From Acidobacterium sp. (GTDB lineage Bacteria; Acidobacteriota; Terriglobia; Terriglobales; Acidobacteriaceae): a stretch of DNA of 64,000 nucleotides. Positions within the stretch are counted from its first letter, which is position 1, and each line of letters opens with the position of its first letter. Location of the stretch: the NCBI GenBank assembly GCA_003131625.1, contig PKVY01000148.1:1-64000 (forward strand). Reading direction: 5' to 3'. The notes beneath the pieces were generated by a model. The model was not told the DNA's origin. It made no database searches and saw only the letters and a program-made list of their open reading frames with translations. Shown one piece after another: positions 36,328-50,640 of the stretch. The position numbers were made by a program, and so were the translations under genes.

Positions 36328-36940
36328 TCCTCTTTTAGAATCAATCACATCGTGATGGCCCCGGTTCGATATTTATCGAAGCTTCGCCGAACTTCGCCAA
36401 ACTCCCTGGCGAGATCAAAGTCGACCGTCTCCACGGCGGCTAGCGAAGCCCTCTATTTTCTTCAGCCATGTTGAAAGACAGGCCACTCTTCTTCACAACA
36501 AGATCGGGATCTTGCCCGAAGGGTTGTAAGCGAGTTAGGTTCGGCGGAACTGCGTCGGACGAATGCAGCTTTTGGCGTAACCGAAGGTGGCGATTGAAGC
36601 CGGTTGAGGTGAGCGACGCCCGGGTTGGTGTTCAGGATCGGCGCCGCGCCGTACCTGATCCCGTGCGACGTCCCGGTGCAGGGGAAACGGCCGACCCCAG
36701 GGCGGTTCCCCTTCTGTGATTCTGTGATCACGATCACCTACAACAGTCGCGGCGCGGCACACACTGGTGTTGGCGGCGCAATTTCAACGGTCCTCAGGAA
36801 GAGCTAACAGGATCCGACGTGAAGACACGAGTCCAGGCGGCTTGCCTCGGCGGGCCTGTGACCCGATTGGATCAACGTGGGAGCGCGTTCTGGAATCGCA
36901 AGTCCCATTCGCGCCGTGCGCGCGGAAAGGAAGCTCGAAG
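36328..36940. other. Gene-poor stretch before sigma-54 activator
   Basis: No supported gene. Tandem near-repeats TTCGCCGAAC and TTCGCCAAAC at about 36384-36403 lie 60 bp from the tRNA remnant and resemble integrase arm sites. An inverted repeat TTCGATA/TATCGAA is at about 36367-36382. Confidence 0.35.
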
Positions 36941-38374
36941 ATGGCCTCCGGTGCTGCCACAGATCCTGAAAGTCGCTGTGAGCCGTCCCTCAACCCCCTG
37001 ACCGAGGCAGCGTTGCACGGCATTACGCGGGCGCTGGCTTCCGTCGGCCGGGCCTTTATCTGTCTCGATCCGTCCTTCCGCATTGTGCACGTCTCGAAAC
37101 TGCTCAACGACTTCCTGGGCGAGGGCGTCGCGGCGAAGCTGCCTGGACGCCCCGTCGAAGAACTGCTGGGCGAGGATCTTTTCGGACAGAGCGGCCAGCT
37201 TCGTCAGGCGCTGCTGGAGGGCCAGGTGCGGGAGGGGTGGCGGGCTACACTCAAATTCGCCGACTCCTATACTCGCCTTGTTTCTATCACGGCAGCTCCG
37301 ATGGTGACGGATCACTCGGAAATATGCGACCCGATGGTACGCTACCTGATCCTGCTTCGACCGGCTGATGAGGAAGAATCTTGTCCCGATGCTGCAATCT
37401 TCTGCTCTGACGCGGTGGGGTGCTCAACGGAGATGCAGCGCATCTTCCGACTTGTCGGCGCCCTGCAACACAGCGAAGCTACGGTTCTTATCACGGGAGA
37501 GAGCGGAACAGGAAAAGAGGTCGTCGCACGAGCCATTCACAAGAACTCATTGCGCAGTGGCGGCCCGTTCGTGGCGGTCAATTGCGGCGCTCTTCCCGCC
37601 GATCTTCTTGAGTCCGAACTTTTTGGACATGTTCGCGGGGCCTTTACCGGGGCGGTACGCGATCGCGTCGGACGATTCGAACTCGCCTCCCAGGGCACAC
37701 TCTTCCTCGATGAGATCGGCGACCTTCCATCGCAGCTGCAGGTGAAGCTTCTGCGCGTCCTGCAGGAGCACCAATATGAGCGGGTAGGCGAAAGCACCAC
37801 CAGAACGACACATGCCCGCATTATTGCTGCTACCAACGCCGACCTGCGAGGCGCCTTGCGCCAGGGCAGGATTCGAGATGACCTGTACTACCGGCTGTGC
37901 GTGGTGCCGATTGAAGTGCCGCCGCTGCGCGCTCGACGGGAAGATACTCCTCCTCTGGTGCACCACCTGTTGAACCGCATAACGTCACAACGCGGTCTCG
38001 TGCGACGTATCTCCCCTCAGGCGATGCGTATGCTCCTTGACTATGCGTGGCCTGGTAATGTGCGCGAACTGGCTAATGTGATCGAGTACGCTGTCGTGGT
38101 GGCGCGGGGAGAAACGATTCTGCCGGACGATTTGCCACAGGAGATCCTGCATCCTTGTTCTGCAACGGCTGCCTGCCCCGCCGAAGAATCGATCGATACG
38201 ACAACCGCCTCCCATCTATCCGGATCAGCTCAGTCCGACAAGCCGAGTGACGAAGCAACGCATCTGCAGGCAGTTCTCGAAAAGCATCATTGGAAGAGAG
38301 CCAACGCGGCAAAGGAACTGGGATTGAGCCGCTCCACCCTATGGCGCAAAATCAGGGAGCTTAAGCTTCAATAA
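36941..38374 (+). CDS. Sigma-54-dependent transcriptional activator with PAS-like sensor
   Basis: The 477-residue enhancer-binding protein has a PAS-like N-terminus (residues 15-130, [22 protein letters not shown]), an AAA+ core with Walker A GESGTGKE, the sigma-54 contact loop GAFTGA, Walker [11 protein letters not shown] and arginine-rich sensor segments, and a Fis-type C-terminal helix-turn-helix ([19 protein letters not shown]). The start at 36941 has AAAGGAAG upstream. It is oriented with the redox genes that follow and probably activates them; a GG-N10-GC element lies between it and the porin gene. The signal sensed by PAS is unknown. Confidence 0.9.
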
Positions 38375-38394: not shown

Positions 38395-38501
38395 AACGTT
38401 TCATGCTGCGACGTTATCGCGCAACATAACGTTTCGCCTCGTATCGTCGATTCTCCTAAACCATTCAAATCTAAGCATCGGCCCTTTGGTCTTTCACGTG
38501 C
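38395..38501 (+). promoter_or_regulatory. Candidate enhancer sites and -24/-12 promoter
   Basis: AACGTTTC occurs at 38395-38402 and again at 38428-38435, 33 bp apart (three helical turns), and ACGTTAT/ATAACGT (38411-38432) forms an inverted repeat around it. Downstream, GG (38488-38489), 10 nt and GC (38500-38501) in TGGTCTTTCACGTGC fit a sigma-54 promoter, about 84 bp before the porin start. Confidence 0.5.
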
Positions 38502-38584
38502 CTTCCTCTCTTTCGAAATCTCTTGCGCTATGCACAGCCGGTGCGCCGCACAGAGTCAAGTCATCCCGTGAGGAAGGCCGATAC

Positions 38585-39923
38585 ATGAAAACGCGCGATC
38601 TTTGGTTTCGATCCATTGCAGGCTTCGTATTCGCAACTCTCCTGTTGTTGCTTTCGCCAACCGCCCTGTTCGCAACTGACGGGCATTTTCTCCATGGGGA
38701 CGGTCCCGTGAATGAAGCCATGGGCGGAGCCGATACCGGGTTGTGTCTGGACGCAACCGGTTCGATTGCCTGGAATCCTGCCTGCGCTGTGAAGTTTTCC
38801 GGCCGTCGCTTCGAGTTTCACGGAACAATCTTTATGCCCTGGCGTTCCCTCGGAAGTACGGTCGATGCGAATGCGTTTGGGCCGAGCACACCTGCCGTCA
38901 CGCTCAGCGGAACCACGATCAGCCATCGCGACACGTCGTTGATGCCGGGATTCTCGTTTATCTATCACCGTCTGGGCAGCGCCAATGCATATCACGCGGC
39001 CATGCTGGCAGTCAGCGGGTTCGGCGTGGACTATGACCAGAACACGAACTTCTCGAATCCGATCCTTACAGCGCAGGCGCCGAACGGCTTTGGCTTCGGC
39101 CGCATCCGGTCGAATTACATGCTGGTGACGGTTCCGGTCGGGATTTCGCGCGACCTGACAGAGCGTCTCTCAGCCGGGTTTTCGTTCGTTCCCGCGCTCT
39201 CGATGCTGCAAGTCATTCCTGCACCCTTTGCCCCGCCCGTGACGGCGGGGAGCACGATGCCCTATTACCTCTCGGCGGGAAACAATGCGCCCGCTACGGG
39301 CATGGGTGCGAGTGCCGGTGTGCACTATGCCATGGGGCCAGTCAGCATCGGCGTCTCCTGGCGGTCGCCCGTTTGGTTTCAGAAGTTTTCCTGGGATCGC
39401 AAGGATTTGACCGGGGCGTCCCATGCGATGAACTTCCACATGGATTTGCCCCAGGTCGTTTTCCGTGGGAACCGGAATCGTCGCCCGCAAGGGCACCCTG
39501 ATCGGTGTCGATCTCCGCTGGTTTGACTACGCCAATACCGCCGGCTTCGACAAGGTCGGATATAGGGCAGACGGCTCCCTCGCCGGTTTTGGATGGCGCA
39601 ACATCTGGGCCGTTGGCGGCGGCATTCAACAGAAAGTCGCTTCCTCGACAAAGCTCATGCTCGGCTACAACTACTCCGGCAATCCCGTGCCCGCTGAGTA
39701 CACCTTCTTCAATACCCCGGCACCGGCTATCGTGCAGCACCACGTCTCTGGTGGCATCATCCAGCGAATGCATGGGTGGGATACCACGGTGACCTACTAT
39801 CACGCCTTCCAGAATTCGATCACCGGCCCATGGATCTCAGCGCAGGGACCCATCCCGGGAACGAGCGTAACCAGCAAAATGTCAGAAGATTCTGTAACGA
39901 TCGGCTTCGGAAAGAGCTTTTAG
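38585..39923 (+). pseudogene. Frameshifted OmpP1/FadL-type outer-membrane transporter
   Basis: The first frame gives a signal peptide (GFVFATLLLLLSPTALFA), the FadL-like start ATDGHFLHGDGPVNEAMGGA and beta strands; it derails near 39460. A second frame continues with VGTGIVARKGTLIGVDLRWFDYAN to the C-terminal strand VTIGFGKSF. Removing one T from the run at 39459-39462 restores one reading frame of about 445 residues. FadL-family porins admit hydrophobic compounds. It has AGGAAG before the ATG and is the first gene after the candidate sigma-54 promoter. Mutation or an assembly error cannot be told apart. Confidence 0.75.
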
Positions 39924-40052
39924 TAAGCAGGGGGCGAACCGACAGAAGAACGGGAGGTTCGCCCCTGGCTTGCTCCCGCTCTCGATTCAATCCGCGAACG
40001 TCGCCTTTGCAATCGGGCGGTGGAGAAGGTTGCGATCGAGGAGATGCAGGAA

Positions 40053-40613
40053 ATGAAGCCAAATGCTCGAACGGCCGTCCTCCGCGAACAACCAGGTCGA
40101 GTTCCCGACGGAGCGGAAAAGCACGGGACTGCGATTCCTGCACGTGGGTGGCCGTCCAGTCGCGCCGATCTGCGACGTTCGGCTTCATCGCCCCCTGTTC
40201 TCCGTCCAGCTTCGCGGCGCCTGTTCCTGAAAGCGGGACTTACCTCTCTCGGCGCTCTCGCGCTCTGGATCATGGACCGCATCGCGCGCTCTGCAGAGTC
40301 GATTCCTGAAGAATCGGAAACCACGCTCACCGTGCCCTGGAGCGCGGCGACCGGGATTCACTTTTACGACCCGATGATCGTCGTCAACAGTACAGGCGGC
40401 GTCGCTGTCTTTTCATCAAAGTGCCCGCACCTCGGCTGTCGGATCAACCGCACCGAGGGACAGGAACTGGTCTGTCCCTGTCATGGTTCGCGATTCAACC
40501 TGCAGGGAGAGGTCGTGCAGGGTCCGGCGATGCGGGGACTACGCTCTTTGCCGTTTGGGCTGGACCGTGCCAAAGACGCCCTCCACGTCACCCTGGGAAG
40601 CAGCCAGACGTGA
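40053..40613 (+). CDS. Rieske [2Fe-2S] protein with Tat-type anchor
   Basis: The 186-residue protein has a twin-arginine motif with hydrophobic segment (SRRLFLKAGLTSLGALALWIM, residues 55-75) and a Rieske domain with both ligand boxes, KCPHLGC and CPCHGSRF. It would hold a [2Fe-2S] cluster on the outer face of the membrane and transfer electrons between a quinol site and the next carrier. The start is uncertain; 40053 is chosen for GGAG 9 nt upstream. Its stop overlaps the cytochrome b gene start (GTGA), as in quinol:acceptor complexes. Confidence 0.88.
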   Translation: MKPNARTAVLREQPGRVPDGAEKHGTAIPARGWPSSRADLRRSASSPPVLRPASRRLFLKAGLTSLGALALWIMDRIARSAESIPEESETTLTVPWSAATGIHFYDPMIVVNSTGGVAVFSSKCPHLGCRINRTEGQELVCPCHGSRFNLQGEVVQGPAMRGLRSLPFGLDRAKDALHVTLGSSQT

Positions 40614-43369
40614 AGCGCACGAATCCCAGGCTCTGGCGACGCATTCCACGGATGGGAATGCTGGCTTTCGCTGCCTTTGTCCTGTGTGCCGCAACCGGCA
40701 TCATGCTCGTGCCAGCGTATCGATCGGCGTCGGCGCTTGATTCGCTCGCGCTGCTGTCGTTGAAGAATCCCCCCGGAATCTTCGCACGCAGTCTGCATTA
40801 CTGGTCGGCGCAGGCGTTCCTGGTCCTCACGCTCGCGCACATTGTGGACCACCTGCTGCGGCGCAACGAACGGCTGGTGCGTTTTGGGGTTTGGCTGCGC
40901 CTGGCGCTGACGATTCCGGTCATCATCGCCGTCATGCTCTCGGGATTTCTCCTGCGGGCCGATGCAGGAGCCCAGCAGGCGCTCCCCGTATTGCGGACGC
41001 TGCTCGGCCTGATCCCGTTCGCTGGCGCAGCCATGCAACGGCTGCTCACCGGCGCGGGCACCGACCTCTCCACCATTTACATTCACCATGCCTGCACCGC
41101 AACTCTGATCATCTGGCTGGTTACGGTGGAACACAGCCGGCGCCTCGTGCCGACAGCGCGGTCGCTCGCGTGGATCGCTCCGCCGACCCTCTTTCTTTCT
41201 TTCTTCCTTGTGCCGGGTCTGGAGTGGCGCACGGCAGCGGTTGAAAAGGGGCCATGGTACCTGGTTGGCCTGCAGGAGTTTCTGCACTGGCTTCCCCGGC
41301 CTCAGCTCGCTATTTGGCTTGGCGGCCTGGTCCTGGTGTTGCTCATTGCGTTGCCGAGATTCCCATTGCGCTTCGACGCCGCCATTCGATACGCGCTCAG
41401 CACGCTCGTGGTGTTCTATGTTGCGCTCACCCTGATCGGACTCGCCTTTCGGGGCGATGGCTGGCGATGGACTACTCCCGGCGCGGTTCTGGCTGGCGAG
41501 TCTGACTTTCTTTCTTACCGGGTCTACATACCCCCCGCCAGGAGGCTGGTGGAAACCAGCGTCCCCCTGATTGACGGCCAGCGCGAAGGGTGCCTGTCGT
41601 GCCACGGGAAGATGACCGGATTCGTTGCCGCCCATGACCCCGCGACGATCGGCTGTGCTGCCTGCCACCTCGGCAATCCGTGGACGCTGGACAAGAAGCT
41701 AGCCCACTCCGGCATGACACTCACGCCCGGCAACCTCTCGGTCGTTGCACAGACCTGCGGGGCTTCCAATTGCCACACCGATCAGGCGCAGCGCGTCCAC
41801 GCTTCGCTGATGAACACAATGAGCGGCGTCGTGGGGGTCGATAAGTTCGCCTTTGGCGAGAGCAACGACCTCAACGCACACTACGACGTAGCGGATTTGA
41901 GGCATACCACCGCGGACACGCATCTGCGGAACCTCTGTGCGTCCTGTCATCTCGGCCAGGAGAAGACCCAGCCTGGCCCCATCAATGAGACGGACCGCGG
42001 AGGGGGCTGCTCGGCCTGTCATCTCCGCTACGATCCCGCTGCCGCCGACGAATTGCGGGCACACCCGGCGTCCGCAGCGCCCCTGCGTCATCCGGATATT
42101 TCTGTCCATGTTCCGAAGGAGGCCTGCTTCGGCTGTCACAGCCGCTCTGGGCGTATTGCGACCAGCTACGAGGGCTGGCACGAGACCCTGATGGACGAAA
42201 AGACGGCGCAGGCTTCGCCTGGCTGGCCCGCGCAGTTTCGCCGGCTCGCCGACGGGCGAATCTTTGAAAAACATTCTGCCGACGTTCATGCGGAAAAGGG
42301 CATGACCTGCATCGATTGCCATCAGGCTTCCGAAGTTATGGGAGATGGCGCGACCCACGCCCATGAACGCGACACCATCAAAATCGCCTGTACGGATTGC
42401 CATGCCGCAGGCAAGGCGGCGGCAAAAGAGTATGGCCAACTCGACCCCGAGACGCAGCAGATCGTCGCGATGCGTCAACTGAACCAACCAGGCCGCAAGT
42501 TCGTGGTCAGCGAATCCGGCACTGCGGCCTATCCGAACGCGTTTCTCGACGATCGCGGACGTCCCGTGCTCTCGCCGATGAACTCCGCCGGGCTCCTGAA
42601 GCCGAAGCCAATGGCGGAAGCCTGTACCGCAACTATGCATCAGAGACTGGAGTGTTCCGCCTGCCACACTCCATGGACTCCGCAGTGTATTTCCTGTCAC
42701 ACCTCCTTCGATCGGAGTGCGCAGGGATGGGACTATCTTGCCGGTAAGTATGTCGACGGCAGCTGGCAGGAAGAGGCAGCGAACTATCTGAGCGACGCGC
42801 CCGCGTTGGGCGTCGAGCGCACCTCCACGTCTGATGGCAAATCAGCAGAACGCATCACCACCTTTATCCCCGGGATGATTCTGCACCTGGAACTGCCTGG
42901 CGGTTCCGCAAACAAGCAGTCGCAATTCCGCCGCCTCTTTGCTCCCGCGTCGGCGCACACGACAGCGACCCACTCCCGGGACTGCCGATCCTGTCACACC
43001 AACCCAGCAGCTCTCGGGTACGGACGAGGACAGCTCAAATATGTCGTGACCGGCCGAACGGCTGAGTGGCGGTTCACCCCGCAGTACGCTGCCAGTCCGG
43101 AAGATGGCTTGCCCTCCGACGCATGGATTGGATTCTTACGAGAGCCCAGCGGCAGCTCAGGGACCCGCAAAGGGGCCCGGCCGTTCTCCCTCGATGAGCA
43201 GCGAAGGATCCTTCTTGTGGGCGCCTGCCTCACATGTCACAACGAGAAAGACCCGCGGATTGCCCGGGTCTTCGCCGATTTCAAAGACTACCGTTCGGCG
43301 CTCGGTCCGAAATGCGTGCTGCCCTTATGGCCGGATCGAACTTCTCAACTTGAAGGACAAGCACAATGA
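40610..43369 (+). CDS. Cytochrome b fused to 12-haem cytochrome c
   Basis: The 919-residue protein begins with a cytochrome b6-like membrane part (residues 10-300). Four His haem ligands are visible: two 14 residues apart in LHYWSAQAFLVLTLAH and two 15 apart in the HHACTATL...VEH helix; GPWYLVGLQEFLHW resembles the quinol-site region. From residue 328 to 875 it has eleven CXXCH haem sites and one CX4CH (CGASNCH). It would pass electrons from quinol through b haems to a large periplasmic haem wire. The GTG start overlaps the Rieske stop. This fusion is unusual; most b-type subunits are separate. Confidence 0.88.
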   Translation: MKRTNPRLWRRIPRMGMLAFAAFVLCAATGIMLVPAYRSASALDSLALLSLKNPPGIFARSLHYWSAQAFLVLTLAHIVDHLLRRNERLVRFGVWLRLALTIPVIIAVMLSGFLLRADAGAQQALPVLRTLLGLIPFAGAAMQRLLTGAGTDLSTIYIHHACTATLIIWLVTVEHSRRLVPTARSLAWIAPPTLFLSFFLVPGLEWRTAAVEKGPWYLVGLQEFLHWLPRPQLAIWLGGLVLVLLIALPRFPLRFDAAIRYALSTLVVFYVALTLIGLAFRGDGWRWTTPGAVLAGESDFLSYRVYIPPARRLVETSVPLIDGQREGCLSCHGKMTGFVAAHDPATIGCAACHLGNPWTLDKKLAHSGMTLTPGNLSVVAQTCGASNCHTDQAQRVHASLMNTMSGVVGVDKFAFGESNDLNAHYDVADLRHTTADTHLRNLCASCHLGQEKTQPGPINETDRGGGCSACHLRYDPAAADELRAHPASAAPLRHPDISVHVPKEACFGCHSRSGRIATSYEGWHETLMDEKTAQASPGWPAQFRRLADGRIFEKHSADVHAEKGMTCIDCHQASEVMGDGATHAHERDTIKIACTDCHAAGKAAAKEYGQLDPETQQIVAMRQLNQPGRKFVVSESGTAAYPNAFLDDRGRPVLSPMNSAGLLKPKPMAEACTATMHQRLECSACHTPWTPQCISCHTSFDRSAQGWDYLAGKYVDGSWQEEAANYLSDAPALGVERTSTSDGKSAERITTFIPGMILHLELPGGSANKQSQFRRLFAPASAHTTATHSRDCRSCHTNPAALGYGRGQLKYVVTGRTAEWRFTPQYAASPEDGLPSDAWIGFLREPSGSSGTRKGARPFSLDEQRRILLVGACLTCHNEKDPRIARVFADFKDYRSALGPKCVLPLWPDRTSQLEGQAQ

Positions 43370-43466
43370 TTTCCCGAATCCATCCCGTGAGAAATGAAGG
43401 TGATGAAGGTCACTGTCCGTGCGTCACTTTCAGGTTCAGATCGAGAAGAGAGAGGCAACTGCCCCG

Positions 43467-45656
43467 ATGATGAACCTTTCCCGTCGACGTTTCCTGAAGA
43501 TCGGTGCCGGAACCATGGCCGCAGCCGGCTCGCTGGATGCCTCGCTCCATGTCCTTGCCGGATCCGGCAAACCGGCTGCGCGCGGCACGCGCACTGTGCC
43601 GACTTTCTGCAATCTTTGCTTCTGGGAGTGCGGCGCGATCGCTACGGTGCGCGACGGCAAGTTATGGAAGATTGAAGGCAATCCGCTCGATCCTCTTTCT
43701 CGCGGCCGTCTCTGCCCGCGCGGCACAGGAGGGATCGGAGCGCACTTCGATCCCGACCGTCTTCGTTCTCCGCTTCTTCGCGTGAGCGAGCGCGGTGAGG
43801 AGAAGTGGAAGGCCGTGACCTGGGATGAAGCGCTCAGCTTCATCGCCGGCAACATGCAGAAGATCAAGGCGGAGTATGGACCGGAGTCCTTCGCAGCGTT
43901 CATCCACGGCCTGGGCGGAAAATTCTTCAAACAGACTCTTCGCGCCTATGGGACAGAGAACATTGCCGCACCCTCTTTCGCTCAATGCCGCGGGCCACGC
44001 GATGTCGGCTTCACCCTCACCTTCGGCGATGGTGTGGGTTCCCCGGAGAGAACCGACATCGAGAACGCCCAGTGCATCGTTCTGATCGGATCGCACATCG
44101 GCGAGAACATGCATAACACGCAGGTGCAGGAGTTCGCCGCTGCTGTCGGAAAAGGCGCAAGCATCATCGTCGCCGACCCACGCTTCTCTGTCGCGGCGAG
44201 CAAGGCGAAGTTTTACCTTCCCGTCAAGCCGGGCACCGATCTGGCACTGCTGCTCGCGTGGATGAATGTCATCGTCGGCGAGAAGCTTTACGACAAGGAA
44301 TACGTCGATAAATACGGCTTGGGTTTTGAGCAGTTCGCCGCGGAGATTCAGCCGTTCACACCGGAGTGGGCCTACCCGGAAACCGGGATCGATCCCGATC
44401 TGATTCGCGCGACGGCGCGGGAGATGGCGCGCTACCGCCCCGCAACGCTCATCCATCCTGGACGTCACTCCAGCTGGTATGGCGACGATGCGCAGCGTAG
44501 CCGCGCGATCGCTCTGCTGAACGCGCTGATGGGAAGTTGGGGCCGGAAAGGCGGCCTGTACATTCCGGCGGGGATGGAGATTCCGGGCTATCCCGTTCCG
44601 CCTTATCCGAAGTCCGAAAAGCCCCCGGTCGATAATCCCAACAACCAATACCCGTTTGCAGATGAAGCGATCAGCACCGGGATCCGGGAAGCTACATTGA
44701 CCGGGAAGCCCTACCCGGTCAAGGGCTGGCTGGTTTATGCGACGAATCTCCTCTACTCTCTGCCCAATCAGGCCGAGACGATTCGAGCGATTCAGAATCT
44801 CGATCTGTTTGTCGTTGTCGATACGATTCCGAGCGAGATCGCCTGCTGGGCCGATATCGTTCTGCCCGAATCCATCTATCTGGAACGTTATGACGAGCTG
44901 CATTCGGAGCCGTTTCGGCAGCCGTTTATCGCGCTGCGCCAGCCGGTCGTCGATGCGCCGGCCGACCAGAAGCCAAACTGGTGGATCGCCAAAACGCTCG
45001 CGGAGAAACTCGGCCTGGGTGCGTATTATCCGTGGAAGGACATCGAGGAGTATCTTGCGGCGCGCCTCAAAGCGGCCGGCTACAGCTTCGAAGACCTGAA
45101 GCGCGACGGTATTTTGCCTGGTCCGCAACGGCCAATCTATTTCGAAGACGGAGCGCCGGCCGTGTTCGACACGCCGTCGAAGAAGATCGAATTCTATTCG
45201 GCGCAGCTGCAGAAGGCCGGTTTCGATCCGGTTCCGAAATACACGCCTCCTGAGCAACCGCCGCAGGGTTCCTATCGGCTTCTCTTCGGCCGCGCCCCCA
45301 CGCACTCCTTCAGCCGCACCCAGACCAATCCTCTTCTCATGGATCTGCAGAACGAGAACTCGGTCTGGGTGAATGCAGTGGAAGCGCAGAGACTTGGTCT
45401 GAAGAGTGGGGACTATGTGCGTCTTCGCAATCTCGACGGTCAGGTCAGCAACAGGGTTCTTGTCAAGGCTACGGAACGCATTCGTCCGGATTGCGTGTAC
45501 ATCACGCATGGCTGGGGACACACGTCCAGGATGCTTCGCAGCGCCTTCGGCCGGGGCGCGAGCGATTCTCAACTGATTACGCGCTACAAGACCGACCCAT
45601 TAATGGGCGGCACAGGTATGAATGTGAATTTTGTCACTCTCGAGACGGAGGTCTGA
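43467..45656 (+). CDS. Tat-exported molybdopterin oxidoreductase (CISM/DMSOR type)
   Basis: The protein of 729 residues has a Tat signal (LSRRRFLKIGAGTMAAAG) and then the N-terminal [4Fe-4S] motif (CNLCFWEC...RGRLCPRG) of DMSO-reductase-family enzymes. Residues SFAQCRGPRDVGF carry a Cys that could be the molybdenum ligand, as in polysulfide- or thiosulfate-type enzymes. The molybdopterin-binding end (THGWGHTSRMLRSAFGRG) is intact. It is the catalytic subunit of a complex with the following ferredoxin and NrfD genes, and would act in the periplasm. The substrate cannot be read; sulfur compounds are suggested by the YeeE/rhodanese genes downstream, and arsenic or selenium oxyanions remain possible. 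Confidence 0.88.
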   Translation: MMNLSRRRFLKIGAGTMAAAGSLDASLHVLAGSGKPAARGTRTVPTFCNLCFWECGAIATVRDGKLWKIEGNPLDPLSRGRLCPRGTGGIGAHFDPDRLRSPLLRVSERGEEKWKAVTWDEALSFIAGNMQKIKAEYGPESFAAFIHGLGGKFFKQTLRAYGTENIAAPSFAQCRGPRDVGFTLTFGDGVGSPERTDIENAQCIVLIGSHIGENMHNTQVQEFAAAVGKGASIIVADPRFSVAASKAKFYLPVKPGTDLALLLAWMNVIVGEKLYDKEYVDKYGLGFEQFAAEIQPFTPEWAYPETGIDPDLIRATAREMARYRPATLIHPGRHSSWYGDDAQRSRAIALLNALMGSWGRKGGLYIPAGMEIPGYPVPPYPKSEKPPVDNPNNQYPFADEAISTGIREATLTGKPYPVKGWLVYATNLLYSLPNQAETIRAIQNLDLFVVVDTIPSEIACWADIVLPESIYLERYDELHSEPFRQPFIALRQPVVDAPADQKPNWWIAKTLAEKLGLGAYYPWKDIEEYLAARLKAAGYSFEDLKRDGILPGPQRPIYFEDGAPAVFDTPSKKIEFYSAQLQKAGFDPVPKYTPPEQPPQGSYRLLFGRAPTHSFSRTQTNPLLMDLQNENSVWVNAVEAQRLGLKSGDYVRLRNLDGQVSNRVLVKATERIRPDCVYITHGWGHTSRMLRSAFGRGASDSQLITRYKTDPLMGGTGMNVNFVTLETEV

Positions 45657-45658
45657 CG

Positions 45659-46198
45659 ATGTCCCGTTTCGCCATGGTTATCGATACGCGGAGATGTGTG
45701 GGTTGTTACGACTGCGTGGTGGCCTGCAAAACCGAAAATGGCGTTCCCGAGGGCTATAGCCGTGACTGGATCACGGAAGAGGTCCACGGCGCGTTTCCCA
45801 CGCTGCAGATGGAGATCCGTTCGGAGCGATGCAATCACTGTGACAATCCTCCCTGCGTCTCCTGCTGCCCGACCGGCGCCAGCCACGTGCATGAGCCTGG
45901 CGGCGTGGTGCTGGTGACCCACGATAAATGTATCGGCTGTAAAGCCTGTCTGGCGGCGTGCCCATATAACGCACGCTTCATCCATCCGGACGGCTATGCC
46001 GACAAATGTACCTTCTGCATCCACCGCGTCGAGCGCGGCCTCGATCCGGCCTGCGTTTCCGTCTGCCCCACGCACTGCATGCACTTCGGAGATCTGGACG
46101 ATCCGCAGTCCGAGGTGAGCCAGTTGCTGAACTCGCGCCCGCATCATGCTCTGCTGCCGGAAGCGGGAACCAAACCATGCATTTTCTATCTGACTTAG
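45659..46198 (+). CDS. Four-cluster 4Fe-4S ferredoxin subunit (PsrB/NrfC type)
   Basis: This 179-residue iron-sulfur protein has sixteen cysteines arranged for four [4Fe-4S] clusters: CVGCYDCVVAC, CNHCDNPPCVSCCP, CIGCKACLAACP and CTFCIHRVERGLDPAC. It is the electron-transfer subunit between the membrane anchor and molybdoenzyme. It starts 2 bp after the preceding stop with GGAGG upstream. No signal peptide is visible; such subunits are often carried across with their Tat partner. Confidence 0.9.
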   Translation: MSRFAMVIDTRRCVGCYDCVVACKTENGVPEGYSRDWITEEVHGAFPTLQMEIRSERCNHCDNPPCVSCCPTGASHVHEPGGVVLVTHDKCIGCKACLAACPYNARFIHPDGYADKCTFCIHRVERGLDPACVSVCPTHCMHFGDLDDPQSEVSQLLNSRPHHALLPEAGTKPCIFYLT

Positions 46199-46204
46199 AC
46201 GAAC

Positions 46205-47257
46205 ATGAACCCACTCACTGAACTAACCCTCTCTCGACACAATCCGCTGGTTGATCCGACTCTTCATGTCTGGCAATGGCAGATCCCGATCTACCTCTTT
46301 CTCGGCGGACTCGTTGCCGGGCTCATGATCATTGCCGGCGTGCGGCTCATTGCGATCCGTCCCACGCAGCGCGAGGCCCTTGTCTGCTGTACGATCGGAC
46401 CCCTCGCGGGTCTGGTCTTCCTCAGTCTCGGTATGTTCGTGCTGTTTCTCGACCTCTCCCACAAGCTGTATGTCTGGCGGCTCTATACGACATTTCAGAT
46501 CACCTCGCCCATGTCGTGGGGCTCGTGGATTCTGCTCCTGGTCTATCCGGCCCTGGCTGCGAACGCACTGGCCCATCTGCCTGAGGCTATTCCAGCCCTG
46601 GCGAAGCGCTTTCCTGTCTTGATTGCCTGGAGCGACTTCATCCTGTCACGCACGCGCCTGGTTGTGGCCATTGGCATCGCCAACGTCCTGGTTGGCATCG
46701 GGCTCGGTATCTACACCGGGATCCTCCTCGGTACTCTCGGCGCGCGCCCTCTCTGGAACAGCGCCTTGCTTGGTCCGCTCTTTCTGTTCTCCGGCCTCTC
46801 TACGGCGGCCGCGCTGCTGCATGGAATTCTCGTTCTTACCTCGTCCGGCGAGGAACTGCCAGCGTTCGCCGACTTCCTGCTCTCCTCCCTGACGCGGCTG
46901 GCTCAGGCGCGTCCTCTCGATCAAAAGGTCGCCCCCGTCCTGGCGGGCGCTGACAACAGCTTCCTGACCATCGAGCTTGGCTTACTCAGCCTGTTCCTGA
47001 TCGGCCACCTCACATCGACCGCCGTCCATCAGCAAGCCGCCACGCTTCTTCTCAGCGGCCCCTACGCAGCCGTCTTCTGGATCTTCGTCATCTCCCTCGG
47101 CATTGTTCTGCCCCTCATTCTGCAAACGCTCGAGCTGCAGAATTCCATTCGCCACACGCTGGCGCCGGCTCTTCTCGTGATCTTCGGCGGGATCGCTCTG
47201 CGCTTCATCCTTGTTTATGCCGGCCAGCAAAGCCATTGGTTCCACGCACTGAATTGA
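46205..47257 (+). CDS. NrfD/PsrC-type integral membrane subunit
   Basis: The 350-residue protein is highly hydrophobic with eight or nine membrane segments, from IPIYLFLGGLVAGLMIIAG through ALLVIFGGIALRFILVYAG. The early LFLGGLVAG sequence is typical of NrfD/PsrC proteins, which exchange electrons with quinone. Together with the two preceding genes it makes a complete A-B-C complex of the polysulfide-reductase type. It follows the ferredoxin gene by 6 bp. Confidence 0.86.
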   Translation: MNPLTELTLSRHNPLVDPTLHVWQWQIPIYLFLGGLVAGLMIIAGVRLIAIRPTQREALVCCTIGPLAGLVFLSLGMFVLFLDLSHKLYVWRLYTTFQITSPMSWGSWILLLVYPALAANALAHLPEAIPALAKRFPVLIAWSDFILSRTRLVVAIGIANVLVGIGLGIYTGILLGTLGARPLWNSALLGPLFLFSGLSTAAALLHGILVLTSSGEELPAFADFLLSSLTRLAQARPLDQKVAPVLAGADNSFLTIELGLLSLFLIGHLTSTAVHQQAATLLLSGPYAAVFWIFVISLGIVLPLILQTLELQNSIRHTLAPALLVIFGGIALRFILVYAGQQSHWFHALN

Positions 47258-47271
47258 CAGAGGAAGAATCT

Positions 47272-47802
47272 ATGAACCTGGAACAACACACTCCCCGACC
47301 TTACTGGAATTCTTACTGGGCCGGATTTGGACTAGGCCTGGTGCTGCTGGCGTCCTTCGTCATCATGGGACGCGGATTGGGAGCGTCAGGGGCGTTCACG
47401 ACCGCCGTCGCTACCGTGGTTCACCAGGTTGCCCCGGCGCATGCAGAAAACAGCCCCTTCTACTCCGAGTATCTCGGCGACGGCACGCACAGTCCACTCA
47501 AGGACTGGCTGGTATTCGAGGTTCTTGGAGTCTTTGTCGGCGGATTCCTTTCGGGCGTACTTGCCCATCGATTGAAGTTCACGGTGGAACAGGGGCCTCG
47601 CAGCACGACGCCCCGTCGACTGGCTTTTGCCTTTGTGGGCGGAGGGCTGATGGGCATTGGTGCAAAGATCGCGCTTGGCTGCACCAGCGGTCAGGCCCTC
47701 ACCGGCGGCGCCTTGCTCAACGTCGGCAGCTGGGCCTTCATGTGGTGCGTCTTTGGCGGCGCCTACGCGGTGGCTTACTTCTTCAGAAAGCAGTGGATCT
47801 GA
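47272..47802 (+). CDS. YeeE/YedE-family membrane protein (N-terminal half type)
   Basis: This 176-residue membrane protein has the conserved GIGAKIALGCTSGQALTGGA loop of YeeE/YedE proteins, whose studied members take up thiosulfate. The start at 47272 has AGAGGAAG upstream. It is split from the adjacent gene 1 bp downstream; the pair probably forms one transporter. The conserved Cys of GCTSG is retained. Confidence 0.85.
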   Translation: MNLEQHTPRPYWNSYWAGFGLGLVLLASFVIMGRGLGASGAFTTAVATVVHQVAPAHAENSPFYSEYLGDGTHSPLKDWLVFEVLGVFVGGFLSGVLAHRLKFTVEQGPRSTTPRRLAFAFVGGGLMGIGAKIALGCTSGQALTGGALLNVGSWAFMWCVFGGAYAVAYFFRKQWI

Positions 47803-47803
47803 T

Positions 47804-49069
47804 ATGAACGCTCCCTTCTACAAATTCGGGCTCTTCGGCGACGAGGCCAGCTTCATCATCGCCTTCCTCATCGGCATCGGCTTTGGGTTCTTCCTCGAAC
47901 GTGCCGGCTTCGGCAGCGCGCGCAAGCTCGCAGCGCAGTTCTATCTCCGCGATCTGAGCGTTCTGAAGGTGATGTTCACCGCGATCATCACCGCCATGAC
48001 CGGACTCTACGTGTTCTCGCGTCTTGGAATGCTCGATTTGTCCCTTGTCTACTTAGTCCCGACCTTTCTGGTGCCTCAGATCGTCGGAGGACTTCTGCTC
48101 GGCGTCGGCTTTGTCATCGGCGGCTACTGCCCCGGGACTTCCTGCGTCTCCGCTGCCACGGGCCGCATCGATGGCATGGTCTACATTTTGGGGATGGTTG
48201 CGGGACTCCTCGGTTTTGGAGAAGTCTACCCCCGGATCGTCAACTTCGCACATTCCACGTCGATGGGTCAGATCACTCTCCCTCAGCTCTTTGACCTCCC
48301 GTATGGGCTCCTGGTCTTTGCAGCCGTACTGATGGCCCTGGGAGCATTTGCGGCCAGTGAATGGGCGGAGAAAAGGTTTGGGGGCAAGCAGCCCGATCCC
48401 GAAGGATCGATCATCGGCGGATCCCGTCGACTCACACCCGTTCGCGCGCTCGCGCTGAGCCTGGCTGTGATCGGACTTTGCGCCGCATTCGCAGGCGACC
48501 CCTACCGCGGCCATCACACAACCATCGCTACCAGGGATCTGGAAATGCGCGTCGGTCAGGGCGCAGATCTGATCGAGCCGGCACAGCTCGCAGACTGGAT
48601 CATCCAGGACCGAAATGATTTTCGCCTCGTCGACCTGCGCCCGCAGAAGGACTACATCGCCTGGCACATTCCCAGGGCAGAGAATTTCCCGCTGGCTTCT
48701 CTCACACCGGATTTCGCAGCACACAACGAAAAGATCATCCTCTGCTCGGATGACAGCCTGGAAGCGGCGAAAGCATGGTTTCTGCTGGAGGCACAGGGAT
48801 TCAAATCGGTCTATGTCCTGAGCGGTGGCATGCAGGGTTGGAAGGATTTCGTGCTCTTTCCCGTTAGGCCGCAGGGAGCCACCGATGCAGCCTTTGAGCG
48901 TCAGGCGCAGGTCGCGAAGTTTTTCGGCGGTTCACCGCAGGCCTCCAATACCGAAGCTTCGTCCGTCGCGACGCCTGCACCTCCCAGGGTGGCGCCCGCT
49001 CCACTTCCAACGGCGCCTCCGGCCAGCACTTCAACAGCGCCGCCCAGAAAAAAGAAAGAAGGCTGTTGA
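47804..49069 (+). CDS. YeeE/YedE membrane protein fused to rhodanese domain
   Basis: The 421-residue protein has a YeeE/YedE membrane part with the GGYCPGTSCVSAATGR signature (about residues 105-120), then a rhodanese domain (residues 260-345) with LVDLRPQKDYIAWHIPRA and the putative active-site Cys in ILCSDDSLEAAK. The C-terminus is proline- and alanine-rich and ends KKKEGC. Rhodanese modules transfer sulfane sulfur, so a transporter-sulfurtransferase link is inferred. It would supply or dispose of sulfur compounds near the molybdoenzyme. Confidence 0.85.
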   Translation: MNAPFYKFGLFGDEASFIIAFLIGIGFGFFLERAGFGSARKLAAQFYLRDLSVLKVMFTAIITAMTGLYVFSRLGMLDLSLVYLVPTFLVPQIVGGLLLGVGFVIGGYCPGTSCVSAATGRIDGMVYILGMVAGLLGFGEVYPRIVNFAHSTSMGQITLPQLFDLPYGLLVFAAVLMALGAFAASEWAEKRFGGKQPDPEGSIIGGSRRLTPVRALALSLAVIGLCAAFAGDPYRGHHTTIATRDLEMRVGQGADLIEPAQLADWIIQDRNDFRLVDLRPQKDYIAWHIPRAENFPLASLTPDFAAHNEKIILCSDDSLEAAKAWFLLEAQGFKSVYVLSGGMQGWKDFVLFPVRPQGATDAAFERQAQVAKFFGGSPQASNTEASSVATPAPPRVAPAPLPTAPPASTSTAPPRKKKEGC

Positions 49070-49132: not shown

Positions 49133-49591
49133 ATGATTATCCGTCACCTGTTTATCTCTCCCGGTCATAATTTCTTCGGTCACCATGGTCAGGCCGCGGC
49201 AGAACATCCTCTGTGCGCCATGACGGAGATTGAGTGCGTTGCCACGCATGGCGTTCGCGGGGATCGTTTCTTCGATTACGGCGACAACTACAAGGGACAA
49301 ATCACATTCTTCGCCAGCGAAGTATTCGATGACGTCTGCCGCTGCCTCGGGGTGCAAATGAAATCCCCGAGCCTTGCGCGCCGCAATGTCGTCACGGCGG
49401 GAATCGATCTGAATTCCCTGATCGGCAAAACCTTCACCGTCCAGGGTGTGGATTTCGAAGGAATCTGCGAATGCAAGCCCTGTTACTGGATGGACTCTGC
49501 GATCGCACCAGGGGCGGAGAAAGCTTTGCAGGGACGCGGTGGATTGCGCGCGAGAATTCTGTCCAGCGGCAGGCTCAGGGTGGACCGGTGA
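49133..49591 (+). CDS. MOSC-domain protein
   Basis: The 152-residue protein resembles MOSC domains of molybdenum-cofactor sulfurases: RHLFISPGHNFFG, GVRGDRFFDY and the Cys-containing CECKPCYWMD motif, which likely carries sulfur or cofactor. The start at 49133 begins just before the domain. It overlaps the moaA gene start (GTGA). It probably services the cofactor of the molybdoenzyme encoded upstream; this link is inferred. Confidence 0.8.
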   Translation: MIIRHLFISPGHNFFGHHGQAAAEHPLCAMTEIECVATHGVRGDRFFDYGDNYKGQITFFASEVFDDVCRCLGVQMKSPSLARRNVVTAGIDLNSLIGKTFTVQGVDFEGICECKPCYWMDSAIAPGAEKALQGRGGLRARILSSGRLRVDR

Positions 49592-50640
49592 ACGGCGACC
49601 CATATGGTTCGCGGCAACAGATTCCGGTTGGACCTCTGTGCACTTTGCCTGGCGCAACCATGGGGCAAATGATCCTGCAACCGCGCGCGCTGCAATCGAT
49701 CCGTAAGCTCAGGCTGTCGGTCACGGATCGCTGCAATCTCCGTTGCCGTTACTGTATGGCGGCCGACAGGCCTCCCACGCTGGATCGTTCGGAGTTGCTC
49801 TCCCTGGAGGAAATGGCCCACATCGCCCGCGTTCTCTGCCGTCACCTGCCCATTCAAAGCATCAAATTGACCGGCGGCGAACCTCTCGTGCGCCATGGTC
49901 TGTCCGATCTGGTCGCAGAACTGGCCGCCATTCCCGGTTCACCTGAAATCTCCATGACGACGAACGGGACGCTGCTTCGCAGATTTGCGGCCGATCTGAA
50001 ACGGAACGGTCTCACGCGCGTCAACGTCTCCCTCGATTCCCTCGATGCAATGCGTTTCGCAGATGTAACTCGTGGTGGGAATCTGGCGGCAACGCTGGAC
50101 GGCATCAACGCGGCCCTCGAAAACGAACTCCGGCCGGTGAAGCTGAATGCAGTTCTGCGTCGATCCAGCTGGCAACAGGACGTGCCTCAGTTGCTTCTCT
50201 TCGCCGGCGCTCTCGGATTGGAAATCCGCTTCATCGAATTGATGCGCACAGGGACCGAACGCGTCTGGTGCGATTCGGAATTCGTATCCGCCGCGGAGAT
50301 TCAAACGTGGTTGACGCGCCAGGGCGCCAGGATTTCTTTGGAAACGCACTCAACCGGATCGGCGTGCTTGTCTTCCGTTCATGGGGAAGGGATCAGCGTT
50401 CGCGTCGGCTGGATCACCCCACGATCGCATCCGTTCTGCGCGTCCTGCGATCGGATTCGGATGAATGCCAGAGGACACATCTTCCGTTGTCTCATGGATG
50501 GAGAGAGAATTCCGATTGCGGAGTTGATTCGGACTACGGACGAAACGAGCGCGCTGATCGCTACGGATCAATATCTGTCGAGTAAGAAATCCCCGGCAGC
50601 CATGGTCCGCGCGGATTCAATGGCATCGATTGGGGGATAA
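49588..50640 (+). CDS. moaA: GTP 3',8-cyclase, molybdenum cofactor biosynthesis protein A
   Basis: The 350-residue radical SAM enzyme has the N-terminal cluster CNLRCRYC, the SAM-binding loop TGGEPLVRHG, SLDSLD and the second cluster CASCDRIRMN..GHIFRC typical of MoaA. It converts GTP to the cyclic precursor in molybdopterin synthesis. The GTG start at 49588 overlaps the MOSC stop; an ATG at 49660 would shorten it. No moaC, moaE, moeA or mobA is present here, so those steps must be encoded elsewhere. The protein ends without the extreme C-terminal GG tail of canonical MoaA, although SIGG closes it with two glycines. Confidence 0.88.
   Translation: MNGDPYGSRQQIPVGPLCTLPGATMGQMILQPRALQSIRKLRLSVTDRCNLRCRYCMAADRPPTLDRSELLSLEEMAHIARVLCRHLPIQSIKLTGGEPLVRHGLSDLVAELAAIPGSPEISMTTNGTLLRRFAADLKRNGLTRVNVSLDSLDAMRFADVTRGGNLAATLDGINAALENELRPVKLNAVLRRSSWQQDVPQLLLFAGALGLEIRFIELMRTGTERVWCDSEFVSAAEIQTWLTRQGARISLETHSTGSACLSSVHGEGISVRVGWITPRSHPFCASCDRIRMNARGHIFRCLMDGERIPIAELIRTTDETSALIATDQYLSSKKSPAAMVRADSMASIGG

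What the first reader, a model, noticed from the sequence alone, without database searches (positions are those of the whole stretch)
47272..49069. Split YeeE/YedE transporter with rhodanese tail in a respiratory operon
The two-gene YeeE/YedE pair and a C-terminal rhodanese suggest import or handling of thiosulfate or sulfane sulfur, which would set the substrate class of the molybdoenzyme.
Basis: partly seen in the sequence, partly recalled or inferred. Interest (0 to 1): 0.5.

Follow-up and report, generated by a model that had tools for sequence, protein, structure and literature searches.

The report
Sulfur transporter with a cysteine arm
Next to a respiratory molybdenum enzyme, this bacterium carries a two-part sulfur transporter with a rhodanese-like extension that ends in a conserved Gly-Cys, predicted to act as a tethered arm carrying sulfur on the outer face of the inner membrane.

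Summary
In detail: 47272-47802 and 47804-49069 encode the C-half and the N-half of a YeeE/YedE transporter. The N-half is fused to a membrane helix and a rhodanese-fold domain, inside a PsrABC-type molybdoenzyme operon. A 2019 paper already describes the core operon in other bacteria (PMC6338057, passages).

The rhodanese fold mostly lacks its catalytic cysteine (Ser in 62 of 91 loci, Cys in 3), but the protein ends in Gly-Cys: 79 of 86 complete homologues have Cys in the last three residues, against 27 of 866 other ORFs. The arm persists in loci without the rhodanese domain or without the molybdoenzyme. The pore keeps two relay cysteines of the thiosulfate transporter TsuA but not the third. 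Residues that bind its partner YeeD are changed, and no TusA/YeeD-type protein was detected.

Best reading: a split YedE1E2-like sulfane-sulfur transporter with a periplasmic swinging-arm sulfur carrier, serving a Psr-type reductase. Thiosulfate is not supported. The molybdoenzyme's substrate is unsettled: Melioribacter roseus, which seems to carry this locus, does not grow on sulfur or thiosulfate and induces it with arsenate. No function was tested.

The parts
36767..38374 (+). sigma-54 activator (AAA domain, Fis HTH); likely local regulator
   Evidence: Pfam Sigma54_activat 229 bits, HTH_8; homologue next to the operon in some relatives, e.g. L052, L059, L066
40020..40613 (+). Rieske [2Fe-2S] protein
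   Evidence: Pfam Rieske 48.2 bits
40604..43369 (+). cytochrome b fused to a multiheme c domain, 11 CxxCH plus one CxxxxCH; start codon uncertain (frame open from 40421)
   Evidence: Pfam Cytochrome_B 31.1 bits; NCBIfam ExtM 240 bits, below its cut-off of 800; heme motifs
43419..45656 (+). Mo-pterin catalytic subunit, PsrA/PhsA type, SRRRFLK twin-arginine motif; likely start 43470
   Evidence: Pfam Molybdopterin 142.5 bits; best PDB match 2vpw_A 737 bits; motif and Cys190
45659..46198 (+). 4Fe-4S electron-transfer subunit (PsrB-like)
   Evidence: Pfam Fer4_11 88.1 bits, run on the longer frame 45491-46195
46205..47257 (+). NrfD/PsrC-type membrane subunit
   Evidence: Pfam NrfD 126 bits
47272..47802 (+). 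YeeE1: C-half of the split YeeE/YedE transporter; pore Cys137 at 47680-47682
   Evidence: Pfam Sulf_transp 78.2 bits, profile 175-309; Cys137 in 113 of 113 loci
47804..49069 (+). YeeE2-TM-rhodanese-arm fusion protein
   Evidence: Pfam Sulf_transp 60.2 and Rhodanese 56.4 bits; AlphaFold mean pLDDT 86
47804..48409 (+). YeeE2: N-half of the transporter; Cys109 at 48128-48130; Gly37 (47912-47914) where TsuA has Cys22
48437..48493 (+). extra membrane helix (residues 212-230), predicted to carry the following domain into the periplasm
   Evidence: model; hydropathy; flank charges in relatives
48530..48856 (+). rhodanese fold (residues 243-351) with Ser at the catalytic Cys column and a Cys one position before it
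   Evidence: VIA-align Z 17.1, rmsd 2.0, 111 aligned to 6mxv_A; column counts
48923..49066 (+). C-terminal tail (residues 374-421), Pro/Ala-rich then Lys-rich, ending in Gly-Cys (codons 49061-49066)
   Evidence: no helix after residue 373, pLDDT under 50 for most of 401-421; Cys in the last 3 residues in 79 of 86 complete homologues
49151..49591 (+). MOSC-domain protein
   Evidence: Pfam MOSC 30 bits, cut-off 22.7
49471..50640 (+). MoaA (molybdenum cofactor synthesis); the frame may start later than 49471
   Evidence: NCBIfam moaA 296.3 bits, cut-off 284.05

Best explanation
YeeE1 and YeeE2 form a two-chain inner-membrane sulfur relay of the YedE1E2/PmpAB kind, acting on sulfane (zero-valent) sulfur rather than on thiosulfate as TsuA does. 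YeeE2 carries a periplasmic extension: a membrane helix, a rhodanese fold that mostly lacks its catalytic cysteine and acts as a spacer, and a flexible tail ending in Gly-Cys. The terminal cysteine is the sulfur-bearing group, a swinging arm comparable to that of SoxY. It is loaded in the periplasm from polysulfide, S0 or another rhodanese and hands the sulfur to the pore cysteines C137 and C109. In this operon it probably also exchanges sulfur with the Tat-exported PsrA-type Mo subunit, which reduces sulfane sulfur to sulfide with electrons from quinol through the FeS and NrfD subunits. Shown by sequence: the operon, the two halves, the two conserved pore cysteines, the missing third cysteine and changed YeeD contacts, the mostly missing rhodanese cysteine, and the conserved terminal Gly-Cys. 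Inferred: the periplasmic side, the flexibility, persulfide loading, delivery to the pore, and exchange with the Mo enzyme.
For: Arm: of 91 adjacent TM-rhodanese proteins, 86 are complete; 79 have Cys in the last 3 residues and 70 end exactly in Cys, against 27 of 866 other ORFs of the 80 named loci. In 62 of the 79 it is the only Cys in the last 150 residues. The catalytic column is Ser in 62 and Cys in 3 of 91; of those three, L078 and L079 lack the arm and L112 has both. The arm is kept without the rhodanese domain: YeeE2 of L149, L153, L154 and L158 itself ends VEDEGC, and L149 has no rhodanese match; in L162 a separate 83-residue TM protein ends EDEGC. It is kept without the Mo enzyme: L114, L117, L126, L145. 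Pore: C137 in 113 of 113, C109 in 112 of 114, and the third-Cys position is Cys in 0 of 114. YeeD contacts R28, R98, E101 and E261 map mostly to A, A/S, T and R. TusA: 0 matches in the own genome, none in 12 of 18 others. Topology: in 55 separate TM-rhodanese genes, K+R is higher on the N-flank in 44, equal in 6, lower in 5. Client: distances of Mo and YeeE2 correlate, r = 0.75 over 51 loci. Analogues: split YedE1E2 imports zero-valent sulfur and both Cys are essential (PMC10812762); the SoxY GGCGG cysteine binds sulfur substrate (PMC6067878).
Against: No sulfur transfer, transport or topology was measured. The loci were chosen for likeness to YeeE2 and include an identical pair (L060 and L118) and near copies, so the counts are not independent. 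Conservation does not say what the cysteine binds: sulfur, arsenic, selenium or a partner protein. The window and four relatives (L088, L089, L091, L101) have a Cys one position before the catalytic column, and L112 has Cys in that column together with the arm, so loss of rhodanese chemistry is not certain, least of all for the window. If sulfur is imported, the missing third cysteine and missing TusA leave no known cytoplasmic acceptor, though the own genome has two other rhodanese matches and 6 of 18 relatives do have TusA. Growth data from a cultured carrier argue against S0 or thiosulfate respiration. The YeeE1 model is poor (pTM 0.47, no PDB match), so the assembled pore was not modelled. 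Seven of 86 complete proteins lack a Cys in the last three residues; in L094, L099 and L130 an in-frame stop precedes an encoded Cys end.
Confidence: 0.5

Rival explanations
1. The pair is a thiosulfate importer like TsuA, feeding sulfur for assimilation or for the molybdoenzyme; the rhodanese cleaves thiosulfate.
For: Both genes match Sulf_transp, and two of the three TsuA cysteines are kept.
Against: The third-Cys position is Cys in 0 of 114 loci. The NCBIfam TsuA matches are far below cut-off (42.3 of 400, 33.9 of 645, 22.0 of 400). The YeeD contacts are changed, TusA is not found, and the rhodanese catalytic Cys is mostly missing. YeeD is essential for YeeE uptake in E. coli (PMC11073785, passages).
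Confidence: 0.12
2. The operon is a respiratory arsenate (or thioarsenate) reductase; the YeeE pair and the arm handle arsenic-sulfur species or protect against them.
For: psr/phsA of M. roseus (MROS_1774) is induced by arsenate (adjusted p 0.03), and the authors propose it as the main arsenate reductase (PMC5492636, passages). S0, thiosulfate and sulfite did not stimulate growth (PMC3534657, passages). L112, a MAG titled M. roseus, shows MerR-Mo-FeS-NrfD-YeeE1-YeeE2-armed rhodanese.
Against: The window's catalytic subunit is closest to PsrA (737 bits) and far from ArrA (147 bits). YeeE proteins are tied to sulfur in the papers seen. The module also stands without the Mo enzyme. The M. roseus type-strain genome itself was not examined here.
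Confidence: 0.15
3. A selenium or tellurium oxyanion reductase operon, like Geobacter ext or Bacillus srr (the latter recalled); the pair moves reduced selenium.
For: The multiheme c scores 240 bits with the NCBIfam ExtM model and the b part 47.7 bits with ExtP. The ext cluster also holds a rhodanese and a Rieske protein (PMC5877670, passages).
Against: All ext scores are below cut-off (800 and 290). 15 of 80 named loci show any cytochrome b/c hit (some loci are short), so the block is not core. Other ext genes were not searched for.
Confidence: 0.08
4. The terminal Cys is a structural or assembly feature (disulfide to a partner, metal site or anchor), and the pair is an ordinary YedE1E2 importer.
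For: A Cys-Cys-COOH selenoprotein, SaoC, is discussed with metal or metalloid binding (PMC13188914, passages).
Against: A long linker (median 71 residues after the GGxxW motif in 77 of the 79 armed proteins) suits a reaching arm better than a fixed site. The position and the usually lone Cys match the sulfur-carrier pattern.
Confidence: 0.15

Closest known systems
merR-psrABC-DUF395-rhodanese locus of Ca. Thermonerobacter; psrABC most similar to Melioribacter roseus MROS_1774-1776 and Ignavibacterium album IALB_1661-1663 (PMC6338057, passages)
   Same: Same core gene set: Psr-type psrABC, two Sulf_transp domains in neighbouring genes, a rhodanese protein
   Different: In the window YeeE2 and the rhodanese are fused, a Rieske/cytochrome b/multiheme c block precedes, and the nearby regulator is a sigma-54 activator. 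The passages seen do not mention a terminal Cys, the rhodanese Cys or the pore cysteines.
YedE1E2 of Cupriavidus pinatubonensis and PmpAB of Serratia (PMC10812762, PMC11582611, passages)
   Same: Two chains, N-half and C-half, one conserved pore Cys each
   Different: PmpA and PmpB are about 130 aa each; here 176 and about 200 aa, plus helix, rhodanese fold and arm
TsuA (YeeE) thiosulfate transporter with YeeD/TsuB (PMC11073785, passages)
   Same: Same family; first and second relay cysteines kept
   Different: Split in two, third cysteine and YeeD contacts changed, no TusA/YeeD found in the genome
SoxY of the Sox system (PMC6067878, passage)
   Same: Near-terminal, Gly-flanked Cys as in a sulfur carrier; periplasmic side here only predicted
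   Different: Rhodanese fold, fused or next to a transporter half; commonest end EGC, not GGCGG
PsrABC of Thermus thermophilus (PDB 2vpw)
   Same: Mo subunit 737 bits over nearly its whole length; FeS and NrfD partners
   Different: Adds the YeeE pair and arm; below the NCBIfam PhsA cut-off (494 of 694 bits)
Geobacter extHIJKLMNOPQS cluster (PMC5877670, passages)
   Same: Rieske, cytochrome b, multiheme c and rhodanese in one cluster
   Different: No Mo enzyme or YeeE named in that cluster in the passages seen; family scores here are below cut-off

Membership tests
YeeE/YedE superfamily (Pfam Sulf_transp) | Match above the curated cut-off | tested here: met
   78.2 and 60.2 bits, cut-off 27
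TsuA thiosulfate transporter | Three relay cysteines (C22, C91, C293) | tested here: not met
   C22 position is Cys in 0 of 114 loci; the window has Gly37
TsuA thiosulfate transporter | NCBIfam cut-off | tested here: not met
   YeeE1 42.3 of 400 and 33.9 of 645 bits; YeeE2 22.0 of 400
TsuA thiosulfate transporter | TusA-like partner YeeD/TsuB | tested here: not met
   PF01206: 0 matches in the own genome, which is 93.7% complete
YedE1E2/PmpAB split sulfane-sulfur transporter | Two chains, N-half and C-half, one conserved pore Cys each | tested here: met
   Profile ranges; Cys counts
YedE1E2/PmpAB split sulfane-sulfur transporter | Imports zero-valent sulfur | not testable with these tools
   Needs an uptake assay
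Rhodanese sulfurtransferase | Rhodanese fold | tested here: met
   Pfam 56.4 bits; VIA Z 17.1, rmsd 2.0, 111 aligned
Rhodanese sulfurtransferase | Catalytic Cys in the active loop | tested here: not met
   Ser at that column in the window and in 62 of 91 loci; Cys in 3. The column was fixed by alignment with 1YT8 and with L078/L079; the window has a Cys one position earlier.
SoxY sulfur carrier | Cys at or near the C-terminus, Gly-flanked | tested here: met
   79 of 86 complete proteins; ends EGC 56, GCG 7, GGC 5 of 79
SoxY sulfur carrier | SoxY fold | tested here: not met
   The domain is a rhodanese fold; no SoxY family in the Pfam output. A SoxZ partner was not searched for.
PsrABC polysulfide reductase | Tat-exported Mo subunit of the PsrA type with FeS and NrfD partners | tested here: met
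   (export from the motif only)
PsrABC polysulfide reductase | Polysulfide reductase activity | not testable with these tools
   Growth data of cultured carriers are contrary
PhsA thiosulfate reductase | NCBIfam PhsA equivalog cut-off | tested here: not met
   493.6 of 694 bits
YTD cluster of sulfur disproportionators | YedE with TusA and DsrE | tested here: not met
   No TusA found in the genome; DsrE was not searched
Geobacter ext selenite/tellurite cluster | NCBIfam ExtM and ExtP cut-offs | tested here: not met
   240 of 800 and 47.7 of 290 bits

The most novel reading that the evidence does not exclude
A so far undescribed class of periplasmic sulfur carrier: a membrane-tethered peptide swinging arm ending in Gly-Cys, in most members built on a rhodanese fold that gave up its own catalytic cysteine. 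It works as a cysteine placed ahead of a shortened YeeE relay and shuttles protein-bound sulfane sulfur between a respiratory Psr-type molybdoenzyme and the membrane pore, with no TusA/YeeD needed on the cytoplasmic side. The true respiratory substrate would then be carrier-bound sulfur, which could explain why cultured carriers fail on free S0 or thiosulfate.
Probability: 0.3. Interest if true: 0.75.

Novelty: new variant of a known kind. Interest (0 to 1): 0.55.

Why it matters
How sulfane sulfur is presented to periplasmic Psr-type enzymes and to YeeE pores is, to my knowledge, open. A conserved one-residue target, the terminal Cys, makes it testable by a single substitution. The arm turns up in loci whose record titles name at least ten phyla, including Ekhidna lutea (L114; an aerobe, recalled), so a confirmed role would reach well beyond this operon. 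It also warns against annotating such proteins as thiosulfate transporters or as active rhodaneses.

Tried and rejected
Rejected or corrected: I first took the window's Cys at Rhod position 112 for the catalytic Cys. The 1YT8 alignment and the homologues with a live-looking loop put the catalytic column at 113, Ser in the window; the E. coli mercaptopyruvate sulfurtransferase alignment does not pair Cys112 with a Cys either. I first thought that a catalytic-column Cys and the arm exclude each other; one search shows L112 with both. The first positive-inside counts used truncated fragments or picked the wrong helix in fused proteins: one search gave N>C in 43, equal in 7, less in 25 of 75; one search gave 49, 6 and 22 of 77. 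I rely for the 55 separate genes only, and its N-flanks come from stop-to-stop frames, so some may include untranslated residues. The ext and YTD readings failed on cut-offs and on TusA. A sigma-54 promoter scan was uninformative (91 matches, 74.3 expected by chance). The Lys/Glu-rich GC-stop DNA pattern occurs once in the own genome, at this gene, but the backward control pattern also matches once, so it proves nothing.

Led nowhere: YeeE1 structure and fold search (pTM 0.47, no match with E <= 0.001). In the PDB lists for the fusion model, rhodaneses fill the rows shown and TsuA is not among them, which says nothing against the YeeE fold. A search of the own genome with PF12831 was ill chosen. 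The paper search for rhodanese + swinging arm + C-terminal cysteine found 0 papers. Searches combining YeeE or YedE with rhodanese, Psr or molybdopterin terms led to papers of which I read passages only; none of the passages describes the arm. PMC6338057 is prior art for the operon.

Papers: I saw passages ('find') of PMC8780430, PMC5877670, PMC11582611, PMC12142623, PMC13047784, PMC5492636, PMC3534657, PMC5317091, PMC13188914, PMC6067878, PMC12998232, PMC11073785, PMC10812762 and PMC6338057, and read none in full; others only as search listings.

Rows left out of counts: the 86 complete TM-rhodanese proteins are those of 91 with a stop inside the locus. The 79 armed ones leave out L064, L078, L079, L080, L094, L099 and L130; L080 has a Cys fourth from the end.
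Full report
What is there. The two genes are at the stated place. Gene 1 (47272-47802) matches the C-half and gene 2 (47804-49069) the N-half of the Pfam Sulf_transp profile, and gene 2 continues into a rhodanese domain. Upstream on the same strand lie a sigma-54 activator, a Rieske protein, a cytochrome b/multiheme c protein (11 CxxCH and one CxxxxCH), a Mo subunit with a twin-arginine motif, a 4Fe-4S subunit and NrfD; downstream lie MOSC and MoaA proteins. The Mo subunit's best solved relative is 2vpw_A, 737 bits, which I recall as Thermus PsrA; the Cys that I recall as its Mo ligand is kept (Cys190). It stays below the NCBIfam PhsA cut-off, 494 of 694 bits.

Distribution. The own genome has one such pair. 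None of 11 same-genus genomes matches the fusion protein; among 25 other family members one (G013) has a distant YeeE2 match, and several others match the rhodanese part only. In the phylum draw, 38 of 396 genomes, the own one included, match the fusion protein or part of it at E <= 1e-15. Searching the same 396 genomes with the Mo subunit instead, 16 other genomes have a hit of at least 52% identity, and 14 of these have the YeeE pair next to it. The exceptions are G409 (68% identical, L198) and G285 (L204). In a FastTree of 73 Mo rows, 55 of the 56 rows of the clade holding the window have the pair; most of those rows were found through YeeE, so this is not independent. Distances of Mo and YeeE2 correlate with r = 0.75, Mo and YeeE1 with 0.76, Mo and NrfD with 0.86, Mo and its FeS subunit with 0.73 (51 loci). 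I did not separate this from shared species history.

Named loci. YeeE1 is adjacent in 80, the rhodanese in 70. Of the 56 with at least 4.6 kb upstream of YeeE2, 42 have the Mo subunit and 41 NrfD; 14 have none of Mo, FeS and NrfD in reach. The cytochrome block is optional: 9 of 31 operon loci with at least 8 kb upstream. In L114, L117 and L133, without the Mo enzyme, a separate rhodanese protein precedes YeeE1.

The arm. In an alignment of the rhodanese part of 91 loci, the window's last residue pairs with Cys in 81 of 91 (8 gaps). Of 86 complete proteins, 70 end exactly in Cys and 79 have Cys in the last three residues; the commonest end is EGC, 56 of 79. Among 866 other ORFs of at least 100 aa in the 80 named loci, 27 have Cys in the last three; YeeE1 0 of 113, FeS 0 of 73, NrfD 0 of 72, Mo 3 of 70, cut-off rows included. 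The rhodanese catalytic column is Ser in 62, Ala 11, Gly 9 and Cys 3 of 91. Of the three with Cys, L078 and L079 have no arm and L112 has both; the window, L088, L089, L091 and L101 have a Cys one position earlier. In L149, L153, L154 and L158, YeeE2 itself ends VEDEGC; for L149 an extra helix was seen and Pfam finds no rhodanese. In L162 a separate 83-residue single-helix protein ends EDEGC. Counting these five, 84 loci carry the arm, 67 of them named, from at least ten phyla by record title; MAG labels were not verified.

Exceptions. The seven complete proteins without a Cys in the last three are L064, L078, L079, L080, L094, L099 and L130. In L094, L099 and L130 one in-frame stop precedes an encoded end in Cys; whether these are errors, broken genes or something else was not decided.

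The pore. In TsuA of Spirochaeta thermophila, C293, C91 and C22 are called the first, second and third cysteine; C22 sits at the interface with YeeD on the cytoplasmic side, and C17 of YeeD is the fourth (PMC11073785, passages). Here the first is kept in 113 of 113 loci, the second in 112 of 114 (two gaps, rows L072 and L156 whose frames stop early), and the third position is Cys in 0 of 114. The YeeD-contact positions R28, R98, E101 and E261 are mostly Ala, Ala/Ser/Gly, Thr/Ser and Arg. TusA is not detected in the own genome (the control rings in 11 of 14 genomes). It is not found in 12 of 18 phylum genomes with the pair and is found in 6. So the cytoplasmic end of the TsuA-YeeD relay is missing, and there is an extra cysteine on what looks like the other side. 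The split pair YedE1E2 of Cupriavidus, with one essential Cys each, imports zero-valent sulfur in E. coli, while single-chain YedE3 did not (PMC10812762, passages).

Side of the membrane. The AlphaFold model (mean pLDDT 86) gives membrane helices, a helix at 212-230, a rhodanese fold at about 243-351 (Z 17.1 to 6mxv_A) and a low-confidence end. For 55 separate TM-rhodanese genes, K+R before the helix exceeds K+R after it in 44, equals it in 6 and is lower in 5, which points to a periplasmic domain. This is a rule of thumb, not a measurement.

Prior art and contrary data. PMC6338057 (passages) already describes merR-psrABC followed by two Sulf_transp genes and a rhodanese gene in Ca. Thermonerobacter, with psrABC most similar to MROS_1774-1776 and IALB_1661-1663. 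L112, a MAG titled Melioribacter roseus, has MerR-Mo-FeS-NrfD-YeeE1-YeeE2-armed rhodanese. For M. roseus, S0, thiosulfate and sulfite did not stimulate growth (PMC3534657), and psr/phsA was induced by arsenate (PMC5492636). For Caldithrix abyssi, whose Psr genes lie near two sulfurtransferase genes, S0 and thiosulfate did not support respiration; the authors suggest a missing chaperone (PMC5317091). These results weigh against calling the Mo enzyme a thiosulfate or sulfur reductase on the strength of its neighbours.

Verdict. The finding stands as an observation, and its core operon is known. The conserved Gly-Cys arm on a rhodanese fold that mostly lacks its catalytic Cys, with the shortened pore relay, is the part I did not find in print by the searches named, of whose papers I read passages, within a library that lacks most subscription papers. 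The proposed mechanism is inference from sequence.

Noticed in passing
window 38486-39923: An outer-membrane-barrel-like gene (FadL-like by eye, no Pfam or NCBIfam match) is open in one frame to 39526 and continues in another from 39465; broken gene or assembly error.
   Followed up: partly
L156 10286-10288: The codon of the conserved YeeE2 pore Cys is TGA (GGY*PGTS) with the frame open on both sides, a selenocysteine candidate; PMC13188914 lists a YeeE/YedE selenoprotein with motif GUxSG. No SECIS element was looked for.
   Followed up: partly
L198 8602-14222: A Mo subunit 68% identical to the window's, with FeS and NrfD but no YeeE pair in the stretch; a Porin_O_P barrel gene lies between FeS and NrfD.
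   Followed up: partly
L061 10484-13609: Between YeeE2 and the Mo gene lie a 492-aa and a 118-aa ORF that both end in Gly-Cys (PGSGC, PAGC), although no rhodanese part was found there.
   Followed up: no
L094, L099, L130: Single in-frame stops (TGA, TAG, TAG) in the rhodanese or tail, with the Cys end encoded in frame afterwards.
   Followed up: partly
window 40020-43369 and L089, L091, L102, L110, L132: A Rieske-cytochrome b-multiheme c block, weakly like ExtO/P/M, lies upstream of the Mo gene in these relatives and elsewhere nearby in others.
   Followed up: partly
L112 7670-8353: The Melioribacter-titled locus has a Cys in the rhodanese catalytic column as well as the arm, the only such case of 91.
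   Followed up: no
L148: The module also appears in a contig titled Heimdallarchaeota; binning error or transfer not examined.
   Followed up: no
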